From the IMG/VR virus record IMGVR_UViG_3300006480_000029, positions 1 to 21,629 of that record: 21,629 bases of DNA; one strand, given 5' to 3'. Shown here piece after piece: positions 12,428-21,629 of this stretch. Numbering within the stretch: position 1 is the first letter of the stretch; every line of letters begins with the position of its first letter. The translations under genes were made by a program, and so were the position numbers. The notes beneath the pieces are model-generated. The model was not told where the DNA came from and ran no database searches. It worked only from the letters and a program-made list of their open reading frames with translations. The stretch is from a virus.

Positions 12428-13399
12428 ATGAGAAATTTTCTATTTATACTTACATTATTATTTGCAACAACTTTGTTTGCACGAGACCAAATTAAAATAG
12501 TAGGTAGTTCTACTGTCTATCCATTTGCAACAACTGTTGCAGAACGATTTGGTAAGACTAGTGGATTTAAAACACCAGTAGTTGAGTCAACTGGTTCTGG
12601 TGGTGGATTAAAATTATTTTGTGCTGGACTAGGCACACAACACCCAGATATAACAAATGCATCAAGAAGAATAAAACAAACAGAAATAGATAATTGTAAA
12701 AAGAACGGTATCAAAGATATTACAGAAGTTAAAATAGGATATGATGGTATTGCGATTGCAAACTCAAAAAAAGGTGTAAACTTTCATTTATCAACAAGAG
12801 ATTTATATCTTGCACTTGCAAAAGATGTACCAGCAGATATTAATGGTAAAACTGTGAAACCTAATCCATACAAAAGATGGATAGAAATAAATCCAACATA
12901 TCCAGACTTACCTATTGTTGTTTACGGCCCACCACCAACATCTGGTACTAGAGATGCATTAAACGAACTTGGTATTGAAAGAGGTTGTAAAACTTATCCA
13001 GAGAGAAAAAAACTTAAAGAAAGTAATAAAAAATTATATAAATCCGAATGTCGTGCAATAAGAACAGATGGTGCATATATAGAGGCTGGTGAGAACGACA
13101 ATCTAATAATTGAAAAATTAACAACAAACCCAGATTCATTAGGTATATTTGGTTATTCCTTTTTAGATGAGAATAGAGATAAAGTAAAGCCTGCAACAAT
13201 TAATGGTGTTAGTCCAGAGTTTGAATTAATTAGTAATGGTACATATCCTATTTCTAGGTCATTATGGTTTTATGTAAAAGATGCACACGCAGCTGTAATT
13301 CCAGGCATTAGAGAATATACAAAAGAATTTACATCTGATAGAGCGATAGGTGAAGACGGATATTTAATAGATAAAGGACTCATACCACTTAATGACTAA
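12428..13399 (+). CDS. pstS: Phosphate ABC transporter substrate-binding protein PstS
   Basis: This 323-residue protein is a periplasmic phosphate-binding protein of the PstS family. It has a signal peptide (hydrophobic residues 3-18, likely cleavage after FA at 18). The phosphate-site motifs are VGSSTVYPF (25-33), STGSGGG (54-60), ASRR (78-81), YDGIAI (105-110) and PPTSGTRDA (169-177). It should raise phosphate uptake by the host's Pst transporter during infection. Viral pstS is well known in marine T4-like phages, where it is seen as a host-derived metabolic gene. An AGGAG at 12417-12421 precedes the ATG. I saw no PhoB-type box upstream. It overlaps the next gene by eight bases. Confidence 0.95.
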   Translation: MRNFLFILTLLFATTLFARDQIKIVGSSTVYPFATTVAERFGKTSGFKTPVVESTGSGGGLKLFCAGLGTQHPDITNASRRIKQTEIDNCKKNGIKDITEVKIGYDGIAIANSKKGVNFHLSTRDLYLALAKDVPADINGKTVKPNPYKRWIEINPTYPDLPIVVYGPPPTSGTRDALNELGIERGCKTYPERKKLKESNKKLYKSECRAIRTDGAYIEAGENDNLIIEKLTTNPDSLGIFGYSFLDENRDKVKPATINGVSPEFELISNGTYPISRSLWFYVKDAHAAVIPGIREYTKEFTSDRAIGEDGYLIDKGLIPLND

Positions 13400-16860: not shown

Positions 16861-18041
16861 TGAGATTACATAACGGTGATTGTTTAAATGTTCTAAAGAT
16901 GATGATAGAAGATGAGGTCTTCGTTGATTCTATCGTTACAGACCCACCCTATGAATTAGGTTTTATGGGAAGAAGTTGGGATTCTACTGGTATTGCATTT
17001 CAAAAAGAAACTTGGGAACTATGTTTTAAGGTATTGAAGCCTGGTGGACATCTACTTGCATTTTCTGGAAGTAGAACATATCATAGAATGGCAGTTGCAA
17101 TAGAAGATGCTGGTTTTGAGATTCGTGACCAAGTAATGTGGTTATATGGTTCTGGATTTCCAAAGAGTATGAATGTTGGTAAAATAGTTGATAAGAAATT
17201 AAGAGGAGTTGGGGTTGGAAAATCTGACCCAAAATCCCCTCTACATGGAACTAAAAGACAAAAAATTGATGGTTCAAATGCTAAACATGATATGAGTCCT
17301 TTATACAAAACACAAAATGTAGAATATGAATATGAACATGATATTTCAAAACAATGGGATGGTTGGGGTACTGCACTTAAACCAGCACACGAACCTTTAG
17401 TTCTTGCAAGAAAACCTTTATCAGAAAAGTCTATCGCAGATAATGTATTAAAGTGGGGAACTGGTGGTATTAATATAGATGAATGTAGAGTTGAGGGTAA
17501 TGATGCAAAATATCCAGATAGTAATCCAGTTATGAACAGTGGAAAATATGCACAAAATGAAAATGCAAAAAGAAAAACGGTTGTTCGTAAATCAAGAGAT
17601 GAAAATGGTGTATGGACAAATGATAACTCTGGTATGAAAGCAGAGGGCAGTAAATATGCAGACGCAGACCCTAGAGGTAGATTTCCAGCAAATGTTATGC
17701 ATGATGGTAGTGATAGTATAAAAGAATTGTTTGAAGATAAATCAAGATATTTCTATTGTGCAAAAACATCAAAAGCAGAAAGAAATCAAGGAACAGAGAA
17801 GAAAAATATACACCCAACAGTAAAACCTATTAAGTTAATGAAATACTTATGTAGATTGATTACACCAAAAGGTGGTACAGTATTAGACCCATTTATGGGT
17901 AGTGGTTCAACTGGAATGGCTGCAAAAGAAGAGAACTTTGAATTTGTAGGTATAGAAAAAGAAGAACAATATTTTAATATTGCGAGTGCAAGAATAGAAT
18001 CAGTAGATACTAAATCAACATTAGAGGGGTTTTATGATTAA
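16857..18041 (+). CDS. DNA methyltransferase, DNA (N4/N6) type, orphan
   Basis: This 394-residue enzyme is an amino-methyltransferase of the D12/N4-N6 class. Catalytic motif IV VTDPPYELGF (DPPY 29-32) lies near the N-terminus. The SAM-binding motif I, LDPFMGSGSTG (about 343-353), lies near the C-terminus, preceded by HPTVKPIKLMKYL and followed by FEFVGIE. This motif order is beta-class. The middle (about 110-310) is the variable target-recognition region, with GSGFPKSMNVGK and FYCAKTSKAERNQG. No endonuclease is adjacent, so it is probably an orphan that protects phage DNA from host restriction or marks it. It starts in the gp46 stop; a second in-frame ATG three bases on is equally possible. 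Confidence 0.92.
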   Translation: MMRLHNGDCLNVLKMMIEDEVFVDSIVTDPPYELGFMGRSWDSTGIAFQKETWELCFKVLKPGGHLLAFSGSRTYHRMAVAIEDAGFEIRDQVMWLYGSGFPKSMNVGKIVDKKLRGVGVGKSDPKSPLHGTKRQKIDGSNAKHDMSPLYKTQNVEYEYEHDISKQWDGWGTALKPAHEPLVLARKPLSEKSIADNVLKWGTGGINIDECRVEGNDAKYPDSNPVMNSGKYAQNENAKRKTVVRKSRDENGVWTNDNSGMKAEGSKYADADPRGRFPANVMHDGSDSIKELFEDKSRYFYCAKTSKAERNQGTEKKNIHPTVKPIKLMKYLCRLITPKGGTVLDPFMGSGSTGMAAKEENFEFVGIEKEEQYFNIASARIESVDTKSTLEGFYD

Positions 18042-18486
18042 AAAGATTAGTGTATTGTGTTTACTACCAACATTTGTTTTCGCAACAAATCCTTGTGAAT
18101 ATGATAATCAAACTACATCTACAATGCAAGGCACAGTTGAATCAGTAATCGTAAAAGATAAAACAGTAACGGAATATTTTAGAGAAACAAAAAAATGTAA
18201 AGTATTAATCAAAGCAAAAATATTAGGTAAGTGGTATATGACTTCAGAGGATTATATATTCACACCAGATATGTCAGAAAACGAAGCTTGTCAAAATGCA
18301 GTTAATCGTGCAAAGGAAAGATTATTACAAAAGTTTGTTCCAGAAACATTAGAATCAACCAAGAATTTAAATTGTCAAGTTAGGGACTTGACAAAACAAA
18401 GAATTGAGTGTAGAATAGAGACACTTAATGTTGTAATGCCAGGTTTGGGATTGCAAGAAGTTAAACTTAAACAATGTAATAGGTGA
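18034..18486 (+). CDS. Exported cysteine-containing protein, unknown
   Basis: I do not recognise this 150-residue protein. It has a clear signal peptide (MIKKISVLCLLPTFVFA, cleavage expected after residue 17). The mature part of about 133 residues has five or more cysteines, suggesting disulphides in the periplasm. A helical ACQNAVNRAKERLLQKF segment is followed by NCQVRDLTKQRIECRIETL. It overlaps the methyltransferase by eight bases and heads a run of envelope genes (lipoproteins and membrane proteins to 19814). An 8-base palindrome and an internal promoter-like sequence lie near its 3' end (18372-18416). A role in the envelope is inferred from export and neighbours only. Confidence 0.8.
   Translation: MIKKISVLCLLPTFVFATNPCEYDNQTTSTMQGTVESVIVKDKTVTEYFRETKKCKVLIKAKILGKWYMTSEDYIFTPDMSENEACQNAVNRAKERLLQKFVPETLESTKNLNCQVRDLTKQRIECRIETLNVVMPGLGLQEVKLKQCNR
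18372..18416 (+). promoter_or_regulatory. Internal promoter candidate with palindromic -35 region
   Basis: TTGACA (18388-18393), a 17-base spacer and TAGAAT (18411-18416) give 11 of 12 consensus bases inside the exported-protein gene. The -35 box is one arm of a perfect 8-base inverted repeat, TTGTCAAG (18372-18379) and CTTGACAA (18387-18394), with a 7-base loop. Transcription would start near 18423, ahead of the lipoprotein genes. It could be an operator-controlled internal promoter or a chance match in coding sequence. Confidence 0.4.
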
Positions 18487-18489
18487 TAT

Positions 18490-18693
18490 ATGAATAAAAC
18501 TAAAGGCATTATAACTAATGTTTTAATTTTATGTGGAGTTGCTGCTCTACTTATATTTACACAGTCTTGTGGTACTGTTTCTGGATTCGGTCAAGATATA
18601 AAAGATGTATCTGATTGGTCAAAAGATAAACTACAAAATTCTGATGAAGAGGAGGTGAAAGACAATGGTTTCGAAGTTAAAGACATTGAGTAG
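18490..18693 (+). CDS. Entericidin-like small lipoprotein
   Basis: This 67-residue protein has an N-terminal export segment (VLILCGVAALLIF) and a lipobox-like FTQSC with lipidated Cys at about 27. The next residues, SCGTVSGFGQDIKDVSDWSK, closely follow the entericidin pattern (CNT-x-x-G-x-G-x-D-I), the family of tiny lipoproteins including the EcnA/EcnB antidote/toxin pair. An acidic tail (DEEEVKDNG) follows. The residue three before the cysteine is Thr rather than the usual Leu, so lipidation is likely but not certain. The 3' end holds a near-perfect Shine-Dalgarno sequence for the next gene and overlaps it by 29 bases. Its role in infection is unknown; membrane stress or lysis are possibilities. 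Confidence 0.7.
   Translation: MNKTKGIITNVLILCGVAALLIFTQSCGTVSGFGQDIKDVSDWSKDKLQNSDEEEVKDNGFEVKDIE
18650..18658 (+). promoter_or_regulatory. Very strong ribosome binding site for the LPP20-like gene
   Basis: AGGAGGTGA, a nine-base match to the 16S rRNA 3' end, lies six bases before the ATG at 18665 and inside the tail of the entericidin-like gene. It is the longest Shine-Dalgarno match I noticed in the window and suggests strong translation of the lipoprotein. Confidence 0.85.
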
Positions 18694-19408
18694 TTTTGCT
18701 CTCATCGGATTACTTGGTTCATGTGCAACTCAAGTAGATGAACCTACTCCCATCGTATTAAGTCCTGAAATAGAATATCAAACTAAAAAGGTTGAATCTC
18801 AATCAAGTATTATTCCAGATTGGTTTAAACAATTACCTGAACAAGAAGATATGATTTATTCTTCAGGTACTGCTACTGCACCTGATTTACAATTATCAGT
18901 AGATATTGCTGTAATGAATGCTAAATCAGTTCTGGCAGATAGAATCAATGGTAAACTTGATAGTATGACAAAACAGTTTGTAGCTAAAATGGGTACTGAT
19001 GATGCTGATACTTCAGTATTAGAAGAAATAGAAAAAGTATCTAAAAATGTAGTTGCATCTGTTGATGTTGCAGGCTATAAAGTAAAAGAGATGGAAGTAT
19101 ATCCATCTGGTCCACAATTTAGAACATTTGTTTTACTAGAATATTCTGATAAAGAAGCTAGTAAAATCATTATGAATAGAATGAAAAAAGATAGATTAGT
19201 ATATTCTAAACTTCGTTCTACAAATGCTTTTAAAGAATTAGAGAATAGTGTAAATGAGTCAAAGGCTCAAGATGAAGCACAATCTTTATCTAATATCGAA
19301 AGAGAACTAGATGATTTAGCAGATACATTTAATAGTCAAGTTCAAAATAGATATATTGACACAGTACCTTCTTATGGTCCTGATGAAAATAGATGGATAA
19401 CAGAATGA
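18665..19408 (+). CDS. LPP20-family-like outer membrane lipoprotein
   Basis: This 247-residue protein has a lipoprotein signal (FALIGLLGSC, lipidated Cys at 20). After a short proline-containing linker comes a domain like LPP20/FlgP lipoproteins: IPDWFKQLPEQEDMIYSSG, then a helix with repeated alanines (VDIAVMNAKSVLADRI) and, later, YPSGPQFRTFVLLEY. The C-terminal third is helical and charged. LPP20 proteins are outer-membrane-associated and in some bacteria act with surface or flagellar assemblies. A nine-base Shine-Dalgarno sequence precedes it. I recall a report of a cluster of curli-related proteins in pelagimyophages; whether this is the same locus cannot be told, and no CsgG is seen here. 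Confidence 0.75.
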   Translation: MVSKLKTLSSFALIGLLGSCATQVDEPTPIVLSPEIEYQTKKVESQSSIIPDWFKQLPEQEDMIYSSGTATAPDLQLSVDIAVMNAKSVLADRINGKLDSMTKQFVAKMGTDDADTSVLEEIEKVSKNVVASVDVAGYKVKEMEVYPSGPQFRTFVLLEYSDKEASKIIMNRMKKDRLVYSKLRSTNAFKELENSVNESKAQDEAQSLSNIERELDDLADTFNSQVQNRYIDTVPSYGPDENRWITE

Positions 19409-19752
19409 AGATAAAATGGATTATCTTTGGTTTCATCATTACTTGGTTATTCTTTTCTTATAAAGAAGCTATGTCTGATGATTGGTCTAGAAAAAGTGTA
19501 GGACAAGGTGTTGGTGGTTTCTTGGGTGTATTATCCACACAACTAATGGAAATCAACAACCCTTACGCTTTAGCAACAGGTGGTCTTTTAGGTATGTTTA
19601 TCGGTGGTGAAGTCGGTGAACATATGGATAATACCAGAGACCTTCACAAAATAGAATCGAATCGTTGTAAAGAATTTATTACAGGTGATAATCGTAAAGG
19701 TATGGCTTGTAGAGAAAACGGCGAATGGGTTGTTGTTAAAATGGAGAATTAA
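19405..19752 (+). CDS. Glycine-zipper membrane protein, 17 kDa surface antigen-like
   Basis: This 115-residue protein has an N-terminal hydrophobic segment (IKWIIFGFIITWLFFSY, residues 3-19). A glycine-zipper follows (VGQGVGGFLGVL at 32-43 and ATGGLLGMFIGGEVGEHMD at 57-75). The C-terminal module CKEFITGDNRKGMACRENGEWVVV (C88, C102) has two conserved-looking cysteines. This order resembles the Rickettsia 17 kDa surface antigen/SlyB group, though it lacks a lipobox. ATG 19405 overlaps the previous stop (ATGA) and is preferred to the upstream ATG at 19393. A membrane or outer-membrane role is likely. The alphaproteobacterial flavour of this family supports a SAR11-like host. Confidence 0.72.
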   Translation: MKIKWIIFGFIITWLFFSYKEAMSDDWSRKSVGQGVGGFLGVLSTQLMEINNPYALATGGLLGMFIGGEVGEHMDNTRDLHKIESNRCKEFITGDNRKGMACRENGEWVVVKMEN

Positions 19753-19754
19753 TT

Positions 19755-19814
19755 ATGTGGATTGCTGTAGCTGTCGTGGGGTATTTTTTACTTCCATATA
19801 TAGTAGGAAATTAG
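19755..19814 (+). CDS. 19-residue single-span membrane peptide
   Basis: A tiny open frame, MWIAVAVVGYFLLPYIVGN, starts two bases after the stop of the 19405 gene. GGAG at 19743-19746 is a properly spaced ribosome binding site (eight bases). Almost the whole peptide is a membrane helix. The stop codon touches the terminator stem, so the unit ends exactly here. Size, ribosome binding site and hydrophobicity argue for a real micro-protein, but a chance frame in a short gap cannot be excluded. Function unknown; it may assist the envelope proteins encoded upstream. Confidence 0.6.
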   Translation: MWIAVAVVGYFLLPYIVGN

Positions 19815-19842
19815 AAAAAGGGACTTCGGTCCCTTTTTTTTT
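19815..19842. terminator. Bidirectional rho-independent terminator
   Basis: AAAAAGGGAC (19815-19824), a TTCG loop and GTCCCTTTTT (19829-19838) form a ten-base stem with the very stable C(UUCG)G loop, followed by a run of nine T on the plus strand. On the minus strand the stem is followed by five T, so it can also end the minus-strand peptide gene. It separates the envelope cassette from that convergent gene. Confidence 0.95.
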
Positions 19843-19909
19843 AGTTAATTCCCATTCCTATACTCATAACAACAGTAAAAATTGACATTGCAATTGTAAA
19901 TAAATTCAT
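19841..19909 (-). CDS. 22-residue membrane peptide on the minus strand
   Basis: The only minus-strand gene I support in the window. It reads MNLFTIAMSIFTVVMSIG followed by MGIN and a TAA stop that overlaps the T run of the shared terminator. AGGAG (plus-strand CTCCT at 19915-19919) lies five bases before the ATG. Promoter-like boxes lie upstream at 19929-19966. The peptide is one hydrophobic span, rich in Met, Ile and Val. A complete set of promoter, ribosome binding site, frame and terminator in about 130 bases makes chance unlikely. The function is unknown; it could be a small toxin, a holin-like or superinfection-exclusion peptide, or a regulator of the facing unit. Confidence 0.6.
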   Translation of the reverse strand: MNLFTIAMSIFTVVMSIGMGIN

Positions 19910-19928
19910 ATTAACTCCTATGGCTTGG

Positions 19929-19966
19929 ATTATATCATTATATAGTTTACTTTATACGATTGTATA
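19929..19966 (-). promoter_or_regulatory. Minus-strand promoter for the 22-residue peptide
   Basis: On the minus strand, TATACA (19966 to 19961), an 18-base spacer and TATAAT (19942 to 19937). A second TATAAT lies at 19934 to 19929. Start sites near 19930 or 19922 would give a 13-21 base leader carrying AGGAG. The -35 box overlaps a dyad, TATAC-GATT-GTATA (19953-19966), which could be an operator. The -35 match is only four of six. Confidence 0.5.
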
Positions 19967-20010
19967 ATGTATATTCATAAATAAAATACCAAATAAATTG
20001 CACAGCACCC

Positions 20011-20039
20011 TTGACAATGTTATGAAAGCATAGTAATAT
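20011..20039 (+). promoter_or_regulatory. Early-type promoter with dyad in the spacer (copy 1)
   Basis: TTGACA (20011-20016), a 17-base spacer and TAATAT (20034-20039). It lies in a 28-base block (20008-20035) that recurs at 20982-21009 with four mismatches. The spacer carries TATG-AAAG-CATA (20021-20032), an inverted repeat where a regulator could bind. The start near 20046 precedes AAAGGA and the ATG at 20073. Confidence 0.7.
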
Positions 20040-20072
20040 AAAGACATAATTTCAGAAAGAAAGGACAAAAAA

Positions 20073-20252
20073 ATGTATAATGAAATTTGGAAAGAAGATA
20101 AAATTAAGATGAAAAATCTTATTAACAATTATAATGCTATGTTGGCTGGTCAGTATCCAGATGGTGAATACTTTGAAGAATTCAGTAACATTTGTAAAAA
20201 ATATGATTTCAATCCAGTGTTGGCTTGGGAATATTTTGAGGAGTGTGTATAA
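20073..20252 (+). CDS. Small acidic protein, unknown
   Basis: I do not recognise this 59-residue protein. It is helical-looking, rich in Glu, Lys, Tyr and Asn, with aromatic clusters (YNEIWKEDK, PDGEYFEEF, NPVLAWEYFEECV) and two cysteines. There is no membrane segment or signal peptide. AAAGGA at about 20058-20063 is the ribosome binding site, and the stop overlaps the next start (TAATG), so it forms a two-gene unit with the 20252 gene under the promoter at 20011. Small early host-takeover proteins of T4-like phages often look like this, but that is an analogy only. Confidence 0.8.
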   Translation: MYNEIWKEDKIKMKNLINNYNAMLAGQYPDGEYFEEFSNICKKYDFNPVLAWEYFEECV

Positions 20253-21007
20253 TGAGTGAAATAAATGTTTTAAGTAAAGAAGAGTTATCATTGATAGTAA
20301 GTGATACTACTGCTTATGCTTTTGGTAAAAGCAGATTAAGTGATAAAGATAAAACTTTCTGTAAAGGAATGTTATCTACTGGTATGGGTAGTATCATTAA
20401 AGAAAAAACAATTTTAAATTTTTCTGATTATGAAGACGATACTGCACTTCACGGTTTTGATGGTTTTGAAAAAGATACAAAGAGAGCTGTTGAAATTAAA
20501 ACTGAAACTTTTAGTGACCACGGAAAAACTATTTCTAAATGTTCAGGTACTATGAATTTTGGTGATAATCAAGAAAGTGCATATGAAAAGTTTTCAGAGC
20601 AGAACCCAATAATATCAGTTACATCTTTTGCACCTAACGGAAAAGTAGTTGCTACTATTGAATTTGATTTTGCAGATTCAACTCTAGAAGAAGAATTTAA
20701 AATATATCAAGAGAGAAGACAACAAGATGTTAAAGAAGGTAAAAATAAAAATACTTCTTTATCAAGAAATTATAAAACTTTTGAAAATGCTAAAAGCTTT
20801 AGAGTAAGATTTTATAATAGTAAGTATGGTGATATGTTAGTTGGTCCTTATAGAAAACTTATAGAGGATACCATTTTATCTAAAAATAAACAAAAACTAG
20901 ATAGTTTAGATGAAAAAGAAATTAACAAAATGATGAGTGAAACTCTGACTTTAGAAAAAAAGAAAAATATTTTAGCAATGTCCCTTGACAACGCTATGGT
21001 AGCATAG
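20252..21007 (+). CDS. Uncharacterised protein with possible PD-(D/E)XK nuclease motif
   Basis: This 251-residue protein contains ALHGFDGFEKDTKRAVEIKT, where D70, E81 and K83 fit the D...E-x-K active site of restriction-endonuclease-like proteins. Strand-rich stretches follow (PIISVTSFAPNGKVVATIEF), then KSFRVRFYN and a helical lysine-rich C-terminus. Overall similarity to a known family is not clear to me, so nuclease activity is tentative. The frame can be read from a GTG at 20243, but ATG 20252 overlaps the previous stop (TAATG) and is preferred. Its last codons contain the promoter of the next gene, so the C-terminal sequence is constrained by two functions. Confidence 0.75.
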   Translation: MSEINVLSKEELSLIVSDTTAYAFGKSRLSDKDKTFCKGMLSTGMGSIIKEKTILNFSDYEDDTALHGFDGFEKDTKRAVEIKTETFSDHGKTISKCSGTMNFGDNQESAYEKFSEQNPIISVTSFAPNGKVVATIEFDFADSTLEEEFKIYQERRQQDVKEGKNKNTSLSRNYKTFENAKSFRVRFYNSKYGDMLVGPYRKLIEDTILSKNKQKLDSLDEKEINKMMSETLTLEKKKNILAMSLDNAMVA

Positions 21008-21013
21008 TATAAT
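20985..21013 (+). promoter_or_regulatory. Perfect early-type promoter with dyad in the spacer (copy 2)
   Basis: TTGACA (20985-20990), a 17-base spacer and TATAAT (21008-21013), full consensus. The spacer holds CTATG-GTAG-CATAG (20994-21007), a 5-base inverted repeat. It lies in the 3' end of the 20252 gene. The start near 21020 leads to AAAGGAG at 21038-21044 and the ATG at 21054. Confidence 0.88.
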
Positions 21014-21053
21014 AATAAAATAAGAAAACTGTTATTGAAAGGAGAAACAAATT

Positions 21054-21629
21054 ATGGTAGCAGCAGTAGAAACAATGGCATATGCAGGGGAAGTTCCTTG
21101 GCATGGTCTAGGTACGAAAGTACCACACGATTTATCAACAGATGAAATGTTGAAAAAATCTGGTCTAGATTGGACAGTAGAAAAAATACCATCTATGGTA
21201 AACTTACCAATTAGTCAAGATAAACCTGGTGGGTATAGACCTACTGGTTCTTATTCATTAGTAAGAAGTTCAGATAATAAAATCTTATCACCTCATGTAG
21301 GTAAAGATTGGAATCCAGTTCAGAACAAAGAAGCATTTGATTTCTTTTCAGAGTATGTAGAACAAGGCGATTTAGAGATGCATACTGCTGGGTCTTTAAT
21401 GGACGGTAAGATTGTTTGGGCACTTGCTAAAATTAAACAAGGCTTTGAGTTATTCAAAGGTGATGAAGTAGAAAACTATATGTTGTTTTCTAATCCACAC
21501 AAATTTGGTAAATCTATCGACATTAGAATGACACCAATTAGAGTAGTATGTAATAATACTTTAACTTTATCATTGAGTCAAAATAGTGATAAGATGGTTA
21601 CTGTTACTCACAGAAAACAATTTGATGCA
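21054..21629 (+). CDS. DUF932 phage/plasmid-like protein (3'-truncated)
   Basis: The first 192 codons of a gene that continues past the right edge. The N-terminus contains YAGEVPWHGLGTKV, the conserved PWHGLG block of the DUF932 family (a phage and plasmid protein family of unknown function). Later come the characteristic YSLVRSSDNKILSPHVGKDW, a GSLMDGKIVWALAKI segment, FSNPHKFGKSIDIRMTPIRV and VCNNTLTLSLSQ. The full proteins are usually around 300 or more residues, so roughly half is visible. A perfect host-type promoter and AAAGGAG ribosome binding site (21038-21044) indicate strong early expression. The function is not established. Confidence 0.92.
   Translation, partial: MVAAVETMAYAGEVPWHGLGTKVPHDLSTDEMLKKSGLDWTVEKIPSMVNLPISQDKPGGYRPTGSYSLVRSSDNKILSPHVGKDWNPVQNKEAFDFFSEYVEQGDLEMHTAGSLMDGKIVWALAKIKQGFELFKGDEVENYMLFSNPHKFGKSIDIRMTPIRVVCNNTLTLSLSQNSDKMVTVTHRKQFDA

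What the first reader, a model, noticed from the sequence alone, without database searches (positions are those of the whole stretch)
19841..19966. A complete 22-residue membrane-peptide gene on the opposite strand, sharing a terminator with the facing operon
Every other gene I support in the window is on the plus strand. Here, within about 130 bases, the minus strand carries -10 boxes (two TATAAT), a partial -35 box with a dyad, AGGAG, an ATG, 22 hydrophobic codons and a stop inside a bidirectional terminator. That combination is hard to explain by chance and is too short for ordinary gene callers. A convergent single-span peptide could be a membrane toxin, a small holin-like or exclusion factor, or part of an RNA-level regulator.
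Basis: partly seen in the sequence, partly recalled or inferred. Interest (0 to 1): 0.75.

Follow-up and report, generated by a model that had tools for sequence, protein, structure and literature searches.

The report
Tiny phage membrane-peptide gene
A marine T4-like phage carries an unannotated 22-residue membrane-peptide gene on the strand opposite its neighbours, facing a second tiny membrane-peptide gene across one shared transcription terminator; what the peptide does is not known.

Summary
Window 19909-19841 (-) encodes MNLFTIAMSIFTVVMSIGMGIN, with AGGAG 5 nt before the ATG, a TATAAT upstream and the stop abutting a two-way terminator (19815-19838). It is not chance. Of 23 uncultured phage contigs that show the locus, 20 keep the same 22 codons without stop or frameshift; one (L110) has a very divergent peptide, also 22 residues, ending in the same SxGMGIN; two lack the gene. 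Among 8 distinct sequences 10 of 16 variable sites are third codon positions and pN/pS is 0.14. I found no structured RNA beyond the terminator. The minus peptide matched no Pfam, NCBIfam, PHROGs or PADLOC family, and tblastn found none in 50,697 phage records. One relative (L012) lacks just the minus unit, leaving terminator and early promoter nearly joined: it looks like a small self-contained accessory gene. Best reading: an inner-membrane micropeptide acting through its invariant C-terminal motif on a membrane partner. That a gene is there is well supported; the target is inference. Toxin, holin-like and exclusion roles stay open.

The parts
19841..19909 (-). 22-codon ORF, MNLFTIAMSIFTVVMSIGMGIN, with stop TAA
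   Evidence: Frame kept in 20 contigs plus a divergent 22-codon copy in L110; pN/pS 0.14 over 8 distinct sequences
19915..19919 (-). Shine-Dalgarno AGGAG in the conserved leader CAAGCCATAGGRG
   Evidence: Alignment of relatives; L110 has TTAGGAG instead
19937..19942 (-). Probable -10 box TATAAT of the minus-strand promoter
   Evidence: TATAAT in 9 of 14 distinct leaders, TATAAA or TATAAG in 5; ACTATATAAT also present in L011, which lacks the ORF
19961..19966 (-). Weak -35-like TATACA, spacer 18
   Evidence: 10 of 12 consensus matches together with the -10; poorly conserved in relatives
19972..19990 (.). Conserved AT-rich box, GGTATTTTATTTATGAATA on the minus strand; on the plus strand it contains CATAAATA, like a T4 late promoter
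   Evidence: Alignment; CATAAATA at 19976 is CACAAATA in several relatives; the box is missing in L012 with the gene
19815..19838 (.). Two-way terminator hairpin shared by both transcripts
   Evidence: Folds on both strands; stem kept with changed sequence in relatives
19755..19814 (+). Facing 19-codon ORF MWIAVAVVGYFLLPYIVGN, last gene of the plus-strand envelope operon
   Evidence: 14 distinct DNA sequences, variable sites 14/8/6 at codon positions 3/1/2, pS 0.47, pN 0.11; present also in L011 and L012, which lack the minus gene
20011..20039 (+). Early-type promoter (TTGACA, spacer 17, TAATAT) of the next plus-strand module, diverging from the minus gene
   Evidence: Scan

Best explanation
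A self-contained accessory gene of a lineage of uncultured marine T4-like phages. A promoter on the minus strand (-10 near 19940) makes an RNA of roughly 115 nt: a leader of about 20 nt, AGGAG, 22 codons, then the terminator it shares with the opposing plus-strand operon. The RNA is translated. The uncharged, hydrophobic peptide should insert in the host inner membrane as one helix. The membrane span drifts while the C-terminal S-x-G-M-G-I-N stays fixed, so I infer that it works by docking its C-terminal end, and in most copies a face of small polar residues (T5, S9, T12, S16), onto a membrane partner and altering it, most likely a host inner-membrane protein during early infection. Shown: the gene, the frame, purifying selection on the peptide, the shared terminator, loss in two relatives. 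Inferred: promoter activity, timing, membrane insertion, partner.
For: Frame and length kept in 20 close contigs; 19 of the 22 contigs fetched through the neighbouring gene alone have it, 1 has the divergent copy, 2 lack it. pN/pS 0.14; 10, 5 and 1 of 16 variable sites at codon positions 3, 1 and 2; relocating the same changes at random gives as few amino-acid differences without a stop in 0.035% of 20,000 trials. L110: 7 of 22 residues shared with the window, including S16 and GMGIN, while 3 of the last 5 codons differ synonymously. No charged residue; GRAVY 1.4-1.6. Helical moment of the window copy exceeded by 0.1% of shuffles, and by 0.8-3.3% in five close variants. Two relatives lack the ORF: L012 by a clean absence, L011 keeping a promoter-like ACTATATAAT just before its terminator.
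Against: No transcript, ribosome or protein data. The -35 is weak and poorly conserved. One opposite-strand frame is also open in 8 of 8 sequences (pS 0.21, pN 0.07), and frame +2 is closed in only 1 of 8, so openness alone is weak evidence; the pN/pS contrast is strongest in the annotated frame. L110 has no polar face by the moment test (62% of shuffles larger). The sequences are related and only 8 close ones are distinct. A host partner is inferred from nothing more specific than conservation.
Confidence: 0.45

Rival explanations
1. Lysis or envelope factor: the minus and plus micropeptides work with the lipoprotein and glycine-zipper operon that ends at the same terminator, as a holin-like or antiholin-like pair.
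For: The facing operon codes for lipobox proteins (18490, 18665), a glycine-zipper-like membrane protein (Pfam 12.4 bits against cut-off 25) and the plus micropeptide. The Melnitz homologue of 18665 lies directly before a gene annotated cell wall hydrolase. In the contigs examined the minus gene was not seen without the plus gene, while the plus gene occurs without it in L011 and L012.
Against: Opposite strand and own promoter imply separate control. No endolysin-like gene next to it. Entericidin likeness of 18490 is below cut-off (14.7 of 23.3 bits; 15.3 of 86). 22 residues is shorter than any holin I recall.
Confidence: 0.2
2. Superinfection-exclusion or other moron-type peptide carried for phage competition.
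For: Own promoter-like and terminator signals, opposite orientation and clean absence in L012 are moron-like features.
Against: No PADLOC match. The lineage's life cycle is not known to be temperate. Nothing in the sequence points to exclusion.
Confidence: 0.15
3. Membrane-toxin peptide of the type I toxin kind (Ibs, TisB; recalled), harming the host membrane potential.
For: Tiny, uncharged, hydrophobic, on a short autonomous RNA.
Against: No sign of an antisense RNA antitoxin: no leader structure and no Rfam match at its gathering score. The fixed C-terminus suggests a specific contact.
Confidence: 0.1
4. The conserved product is an RNA, and the ORF is incidental.
For: The transcript would be sRNA-sized; a weak Rfam match (STnc130, E 0.4, 24.3 bits against 55) covers the unit.
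Against: Codon-pattern evidence; consensus fold of leader plus ORF reached or bettered by 123 of 200 column shuffles; single-sequence z between -0.88 and 0.81 in 12 sequences.
Confidence: 0.04

Closest known systems
Phage morons (recalled; papers seen in a search listing only)
   Same: Short unit with its own promoter-like and terminator signals, absent from some relatives.
   Different: Shares the terminator with the opposing operon; classical morons are described mainly in temperate phages.
Promoter early stem-loops (PeSL) of T4-like phages (passage in PMC4503421; the defining paper PMC4122927 is not held)
   Same: In L012, without the minus gene, terminator and early promoter lie 10 nt apart, as in a terminator-promoter junction. 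Genes differ to the right of it between relatives.
   Different: Here an opposite-strand gene sits inside the junction; no mobility was tested.
Type I toxin peptides such as Ibs and TisB (recalled)
   Same: Tiny hydrophobic single-span peptide on a short RNA.
   Different: No antisense RNA found; no sequence comparison with them was made.
Small single-span regulators of membrane proteins such as KdpF or CydX (recalled)
   Same: Size and presumed way of working through a membrane partner.
   Different: No sequence relation shown; partner unknown.

Membership tests
Phage moron | Own promoter and terminator | tested here: inconclusive
   Promoter-like -10 with weak -35; terminator shared with the facing operon
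Phage moron | Present in some and cleanly absent in other close relatives | tested here: met
   Absent in L011 and L012, present in 21 of 23 contigs with the locus, counting the divergent copy in L110
Phage moron | Function outside the lytic programme (lysogenic expression) | not testable with these tools
   No expression data
PeSL junction | Terminator stem-loop directly followed by an early promoter | tested here: inconclusive
   10 nt apart in L012; about 170 nt apart in the window, with the minus gene between
Type I toxin | Short hydrophobic peptide | tested here: met
   22 residues, GRAVY 1.56, no charge
Type I toxin | Antisense RNA antitoxin | tested here: inconclusive
   No structured RNA or Rfam match at gathering score; no transcript data
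Holin or pinholin | Next to an endolysin gene | tested here: not met
   No endolysin-like family among the neighbours scanned in 18034-21629
Any curated protein family | Profile match of the minus peptide | tested here: not met
   0 families in PHROGs, Pfam, NCBIfam, PADLOC; profile searches are weak at 22 residues

The most novel reading that the evidence does not exclude
The two facing micropeptides are a matched pair controlled by one shared hairpin: the minus peptide, not seen without the plus one, is the active membrane agent, and the plus peptide, which occurs alone in L011 and L012, is its partner or restrainer. Convergent transcription towards the common terminator would set their ratio during infection, making this a two-micropeptide membrane switch of a kind I know of in no phage.
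Probability: 0.1. Interest if true: 0.7.

Novelty: new member of a known kind. Interest (0 to 1): 0.45.

Why it matters
It shows that a gene of 22 codons can be recognised as real from relatives alone, in a group of marine phages for which I found no cultured carrier. The facing arrangement of two micropeptide genes across one terminator gives a compact unit that can be tested in a laboratory strain, and it marks a kind of gene that length cut-offs of gene callers tend to drop.

Tried and rejected
RNA regulator: tested by consensus and single-sequence folding with shuffles and by Rfam, not supported. In the window leader and ORF end can pair (GTTAAT with ATTAAC) and a similar pairing is possible in some relatives, but 123 of 200 column shuffles fold as well or better.

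Minus-strand T4 late promoter: TATAAATA occurs upstream of the scaffold and capsid genes (2433, 3906), but on the minus strand it is found in the window only at 12448, inside a gene. The plus-strand CATAAATA at 19976 may be a late promoter to the right, but several relatives have CACAAATA there, so this is left open.

Wider relatives: tblastn of three micropeptide forms in 50,697 phage records gave no match at E up to 10 (short queries, low-complexity filter on, so weak evidence). The genome contigs pattern scan gave 18 stretches, none ending in GMGIN; one is a 22-residue chance look-alike in a Bacilli MAG (L143). Pattern scans of viral contigs gave 3 and 8 unrelated extra hits. Search by gene 20255 found no relative.

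Same architecture elsewhere: a scan of Melnitz, Mosig and HTVC008M (10, 3 and 5 terminator-like strand sites) found no tiny gene ending at a terminator. In 7 uncultured contigs it found only these two families: the plus peptide in 7 of 7 and the minus peptide in 4 of 7. The other 3 carry the minus gene with AGGGG, which the scan's Shine-Dalgarno list misses.

Structure prediction was not used: the peptide is below the tool's 30-residue minimum. Rows dropped: one unrelated MWIA ORF in L024 from the plus-peptide count (one search includes it, one search does not). One search aligned wrong coordinates and is not used; one search stopped half-way and was redone.

Full report
What is there. The window is an IMG/VR virus record of 21,629 bases. 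Its capsid protein is 72.5% identical to that of the SAR11 phage Mosig, 72.2% to that of the Methylophilales phage Melnitz, 70.6% to that of HTVC008M and 67.1% to the best cyanophage listed, so it is a Kyanovirus-like T4 relative whose host is not settled. On the minus strand, 19909-19841 reads MNLFTIAMSIFTVVMSIGMGIN, with AGGAG 5 nt before the ATG and TATAAT at 19942-19937. The stop codon abuts a hairpin (19815-19838) that folds on both strands. On the plus strand, directly before the same hairpin, 19755-19814 reads MWIAVAVVGYFLLPYIVGN. A mechanical scan for a hydrophobic tiny ORF with a Shine-Dalgarno-like site and a terminator finds these two in the window and none in 40 Markov windows.

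Is it a gene. Relatives were fetched through the neighbouring genes (one search kept the best 80 of 172) and by DNA patterns. 23 contigs show the locus. 20 have the ORF in close form, one has a divergent form (L110, also fetched as L153), and two lack it (L011, L012). Counting only the 22 contigs fetched by the upstream gene 19405, which cannot favour the peptide, 19 have it, 1 has the divergent copy and 2 lack it (one search matched by contig name). One of the 20 is near-identical to the window. The contigs are related and come from overlapping ocean surveys, so the count of distinct sequences matters more: 8 close ORFs. Their 16 variable sites fall 10, 5 and 1 at codon positions 3, 1 and 2; pS is 0.34 and pN 0.049; random relocation of the same changes matches this in 0.035% of 20,000 trials. 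Against over-reading, one opposite-strand frame is also open in all 8 (pS 0.21, pN 0.07) and frame +2 is closed in only 1 of 8; the other three frames hold stops in all 8. The contrast is strongest in the proposed frame.

The divergent copy is the best single piece of evidence. L110 has MGYINSILILTVILVSAGMGIN at the same place, strand and length, with its own AGGAG. It shares 7 of 22 residues with the window, six of them S16 and GMGIN at the C-terminus, and 3 of those last 5 codons differ synonymously. The membrane span has changed while the C-terminal motif has not.

Transcription. Leaders were compared in 14 distinct forms. The first TATAAT is TATAAA or TATAAG in 5. The second is TATAGA in 12, so only the first is likely to serve. 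The -35 is weak. A different inverted repeat, CTATAT-NNNN-ATATAG, overlaps the -10 and is perfect in 6 of 14; it could be an operator or chance in AT-rich DNA. L011, which lacks the ORF, still has ACTATATAAT just before its terminator. L012 lacks the ORF and leader: its terminator and the next early promoter lie 10 nt apart, against about 170 nt in the window. The minus unit thus behaves as a removable element inside a terminator-promoter junction. Each absence rests on a single metagenome contig.

RNA or protein. Leader plus ORF shows no conserved structure: 123 of 200 column shuffles fold as well or better, and single-sequence z-scores run from -0.88 to 0.81 in 12 sequences. Three Rfam matches up to E 1 all lie far below gathering scores, one of them (STnc130, E 0.4) spanning the unit. 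The evidence favours a peptide.

Neighbourhood. The facing operon codes for a secreted protein (18034), two lipobox proteins (18490, 18665), a membrane protein with a weak glycine-zipper match (19405) and the plus micropeptide. 18490 resembles entericidin below cut-off (14.7 of 23.3 bits; 15.3 of 86). 18665 has a 52.8% homologue in Melnitz, which lies directly before a gene annotated cell wall hydrolase, and weaker ones in HTVC008M and Mosig. The plus micropeptide is itself conserved: 14 distinct DNA sequences, variable sites 14, 8 and 6 at codon positions 3, 1 and 2, pS 0.47 and pN 0.11. In the contigs examined the minus gene was not seen without it; it occurs without the minus gene in L011 and L012.

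How it may work. The minus peptide has no charge and a GRAVY of 1.4-1.6. In the window copy small polar residues T5, S9, T12 and S16 lie on one helix face (moment exceeded by 0.1% of shuffles; 0.8-3.3% in five close variants), but L110 does not share this (62%). I infer a single membrane helix that contacts a partner through the fixed C-terminal motif. I put the gene itself at about 0.9 and the full mechanism at 0.45, since partner and timing are unknown. Lysis-related, exclusion and toxin roles are the rivals.

What is known. The minus peptide matches no family in PHROGs, Pfam, NCBIfam or PADLOC, and tblastn found no copy in 50,697 phage records, with the caution that such searches are weak at 22 residues. 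The terminator-associated tiny-gene scan found nothing of the kind in the complete genomes of Melnitz, Mosig and HTVC008M. From papers I saw passages of PMC9004378 (Melnitz: curli pore, early and late promoters; lipoprotein and holin do not occur in the main text), PMC7029224 (pelagimyophages: curli operon; no mention of lysis, holin, lipoprotein or small protein) and PMC4503421 (PeSLs), and the outline and abstract of PMC11323111 (phage small proteins). Other papers were seen in search listings only (one search returned none). None of the titles or abstracts listed describes this gene, but I searched only those terms.

Noticed in passing
window 19755-19814: A second unannotated, conserved micropeptide gene (plus strand), present also in relatives that lack the minus gene.
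   Followed up: yes
L011 1438-1704: An 88-residue protein with a sigma-70 region 4 domain (Pfam 62.6 bits, cut-off 24.1) sits right of the terminator, where other relatives have other genes.
   Followed up: partly
window 18034-18490 against L001: Contig 3300006332_000794 is 100% identical to the window in proteins 18490, 18665 and 19405 but only 60.6% in 18034: a sharp mosaic boundary.
   Followed up: no
window 20011 and 20985: Two similar early-type promoters bracket inserted genes (20073, 20252) that other relatives lack; in L015 a DNA-methyltransferase-like gene sits there (by eye).
   Followed up: partly
window 18490-18690: Small lipobox protein with below-cut-off likeness to entericidin.
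   Followed up: partly
window 19929-19945: Inverted repeat CTATAT-NNNN-ATATAG over the -10, perfect in 6 of 14 leaders, imperfect in the window.
   Followed up: no
window 2433, 3906, 19976: T4-type late promoter motifs: TATAAATA before the scaffold and capsid genes, CATAAATA right of the minus gene.
   Followed up: partly
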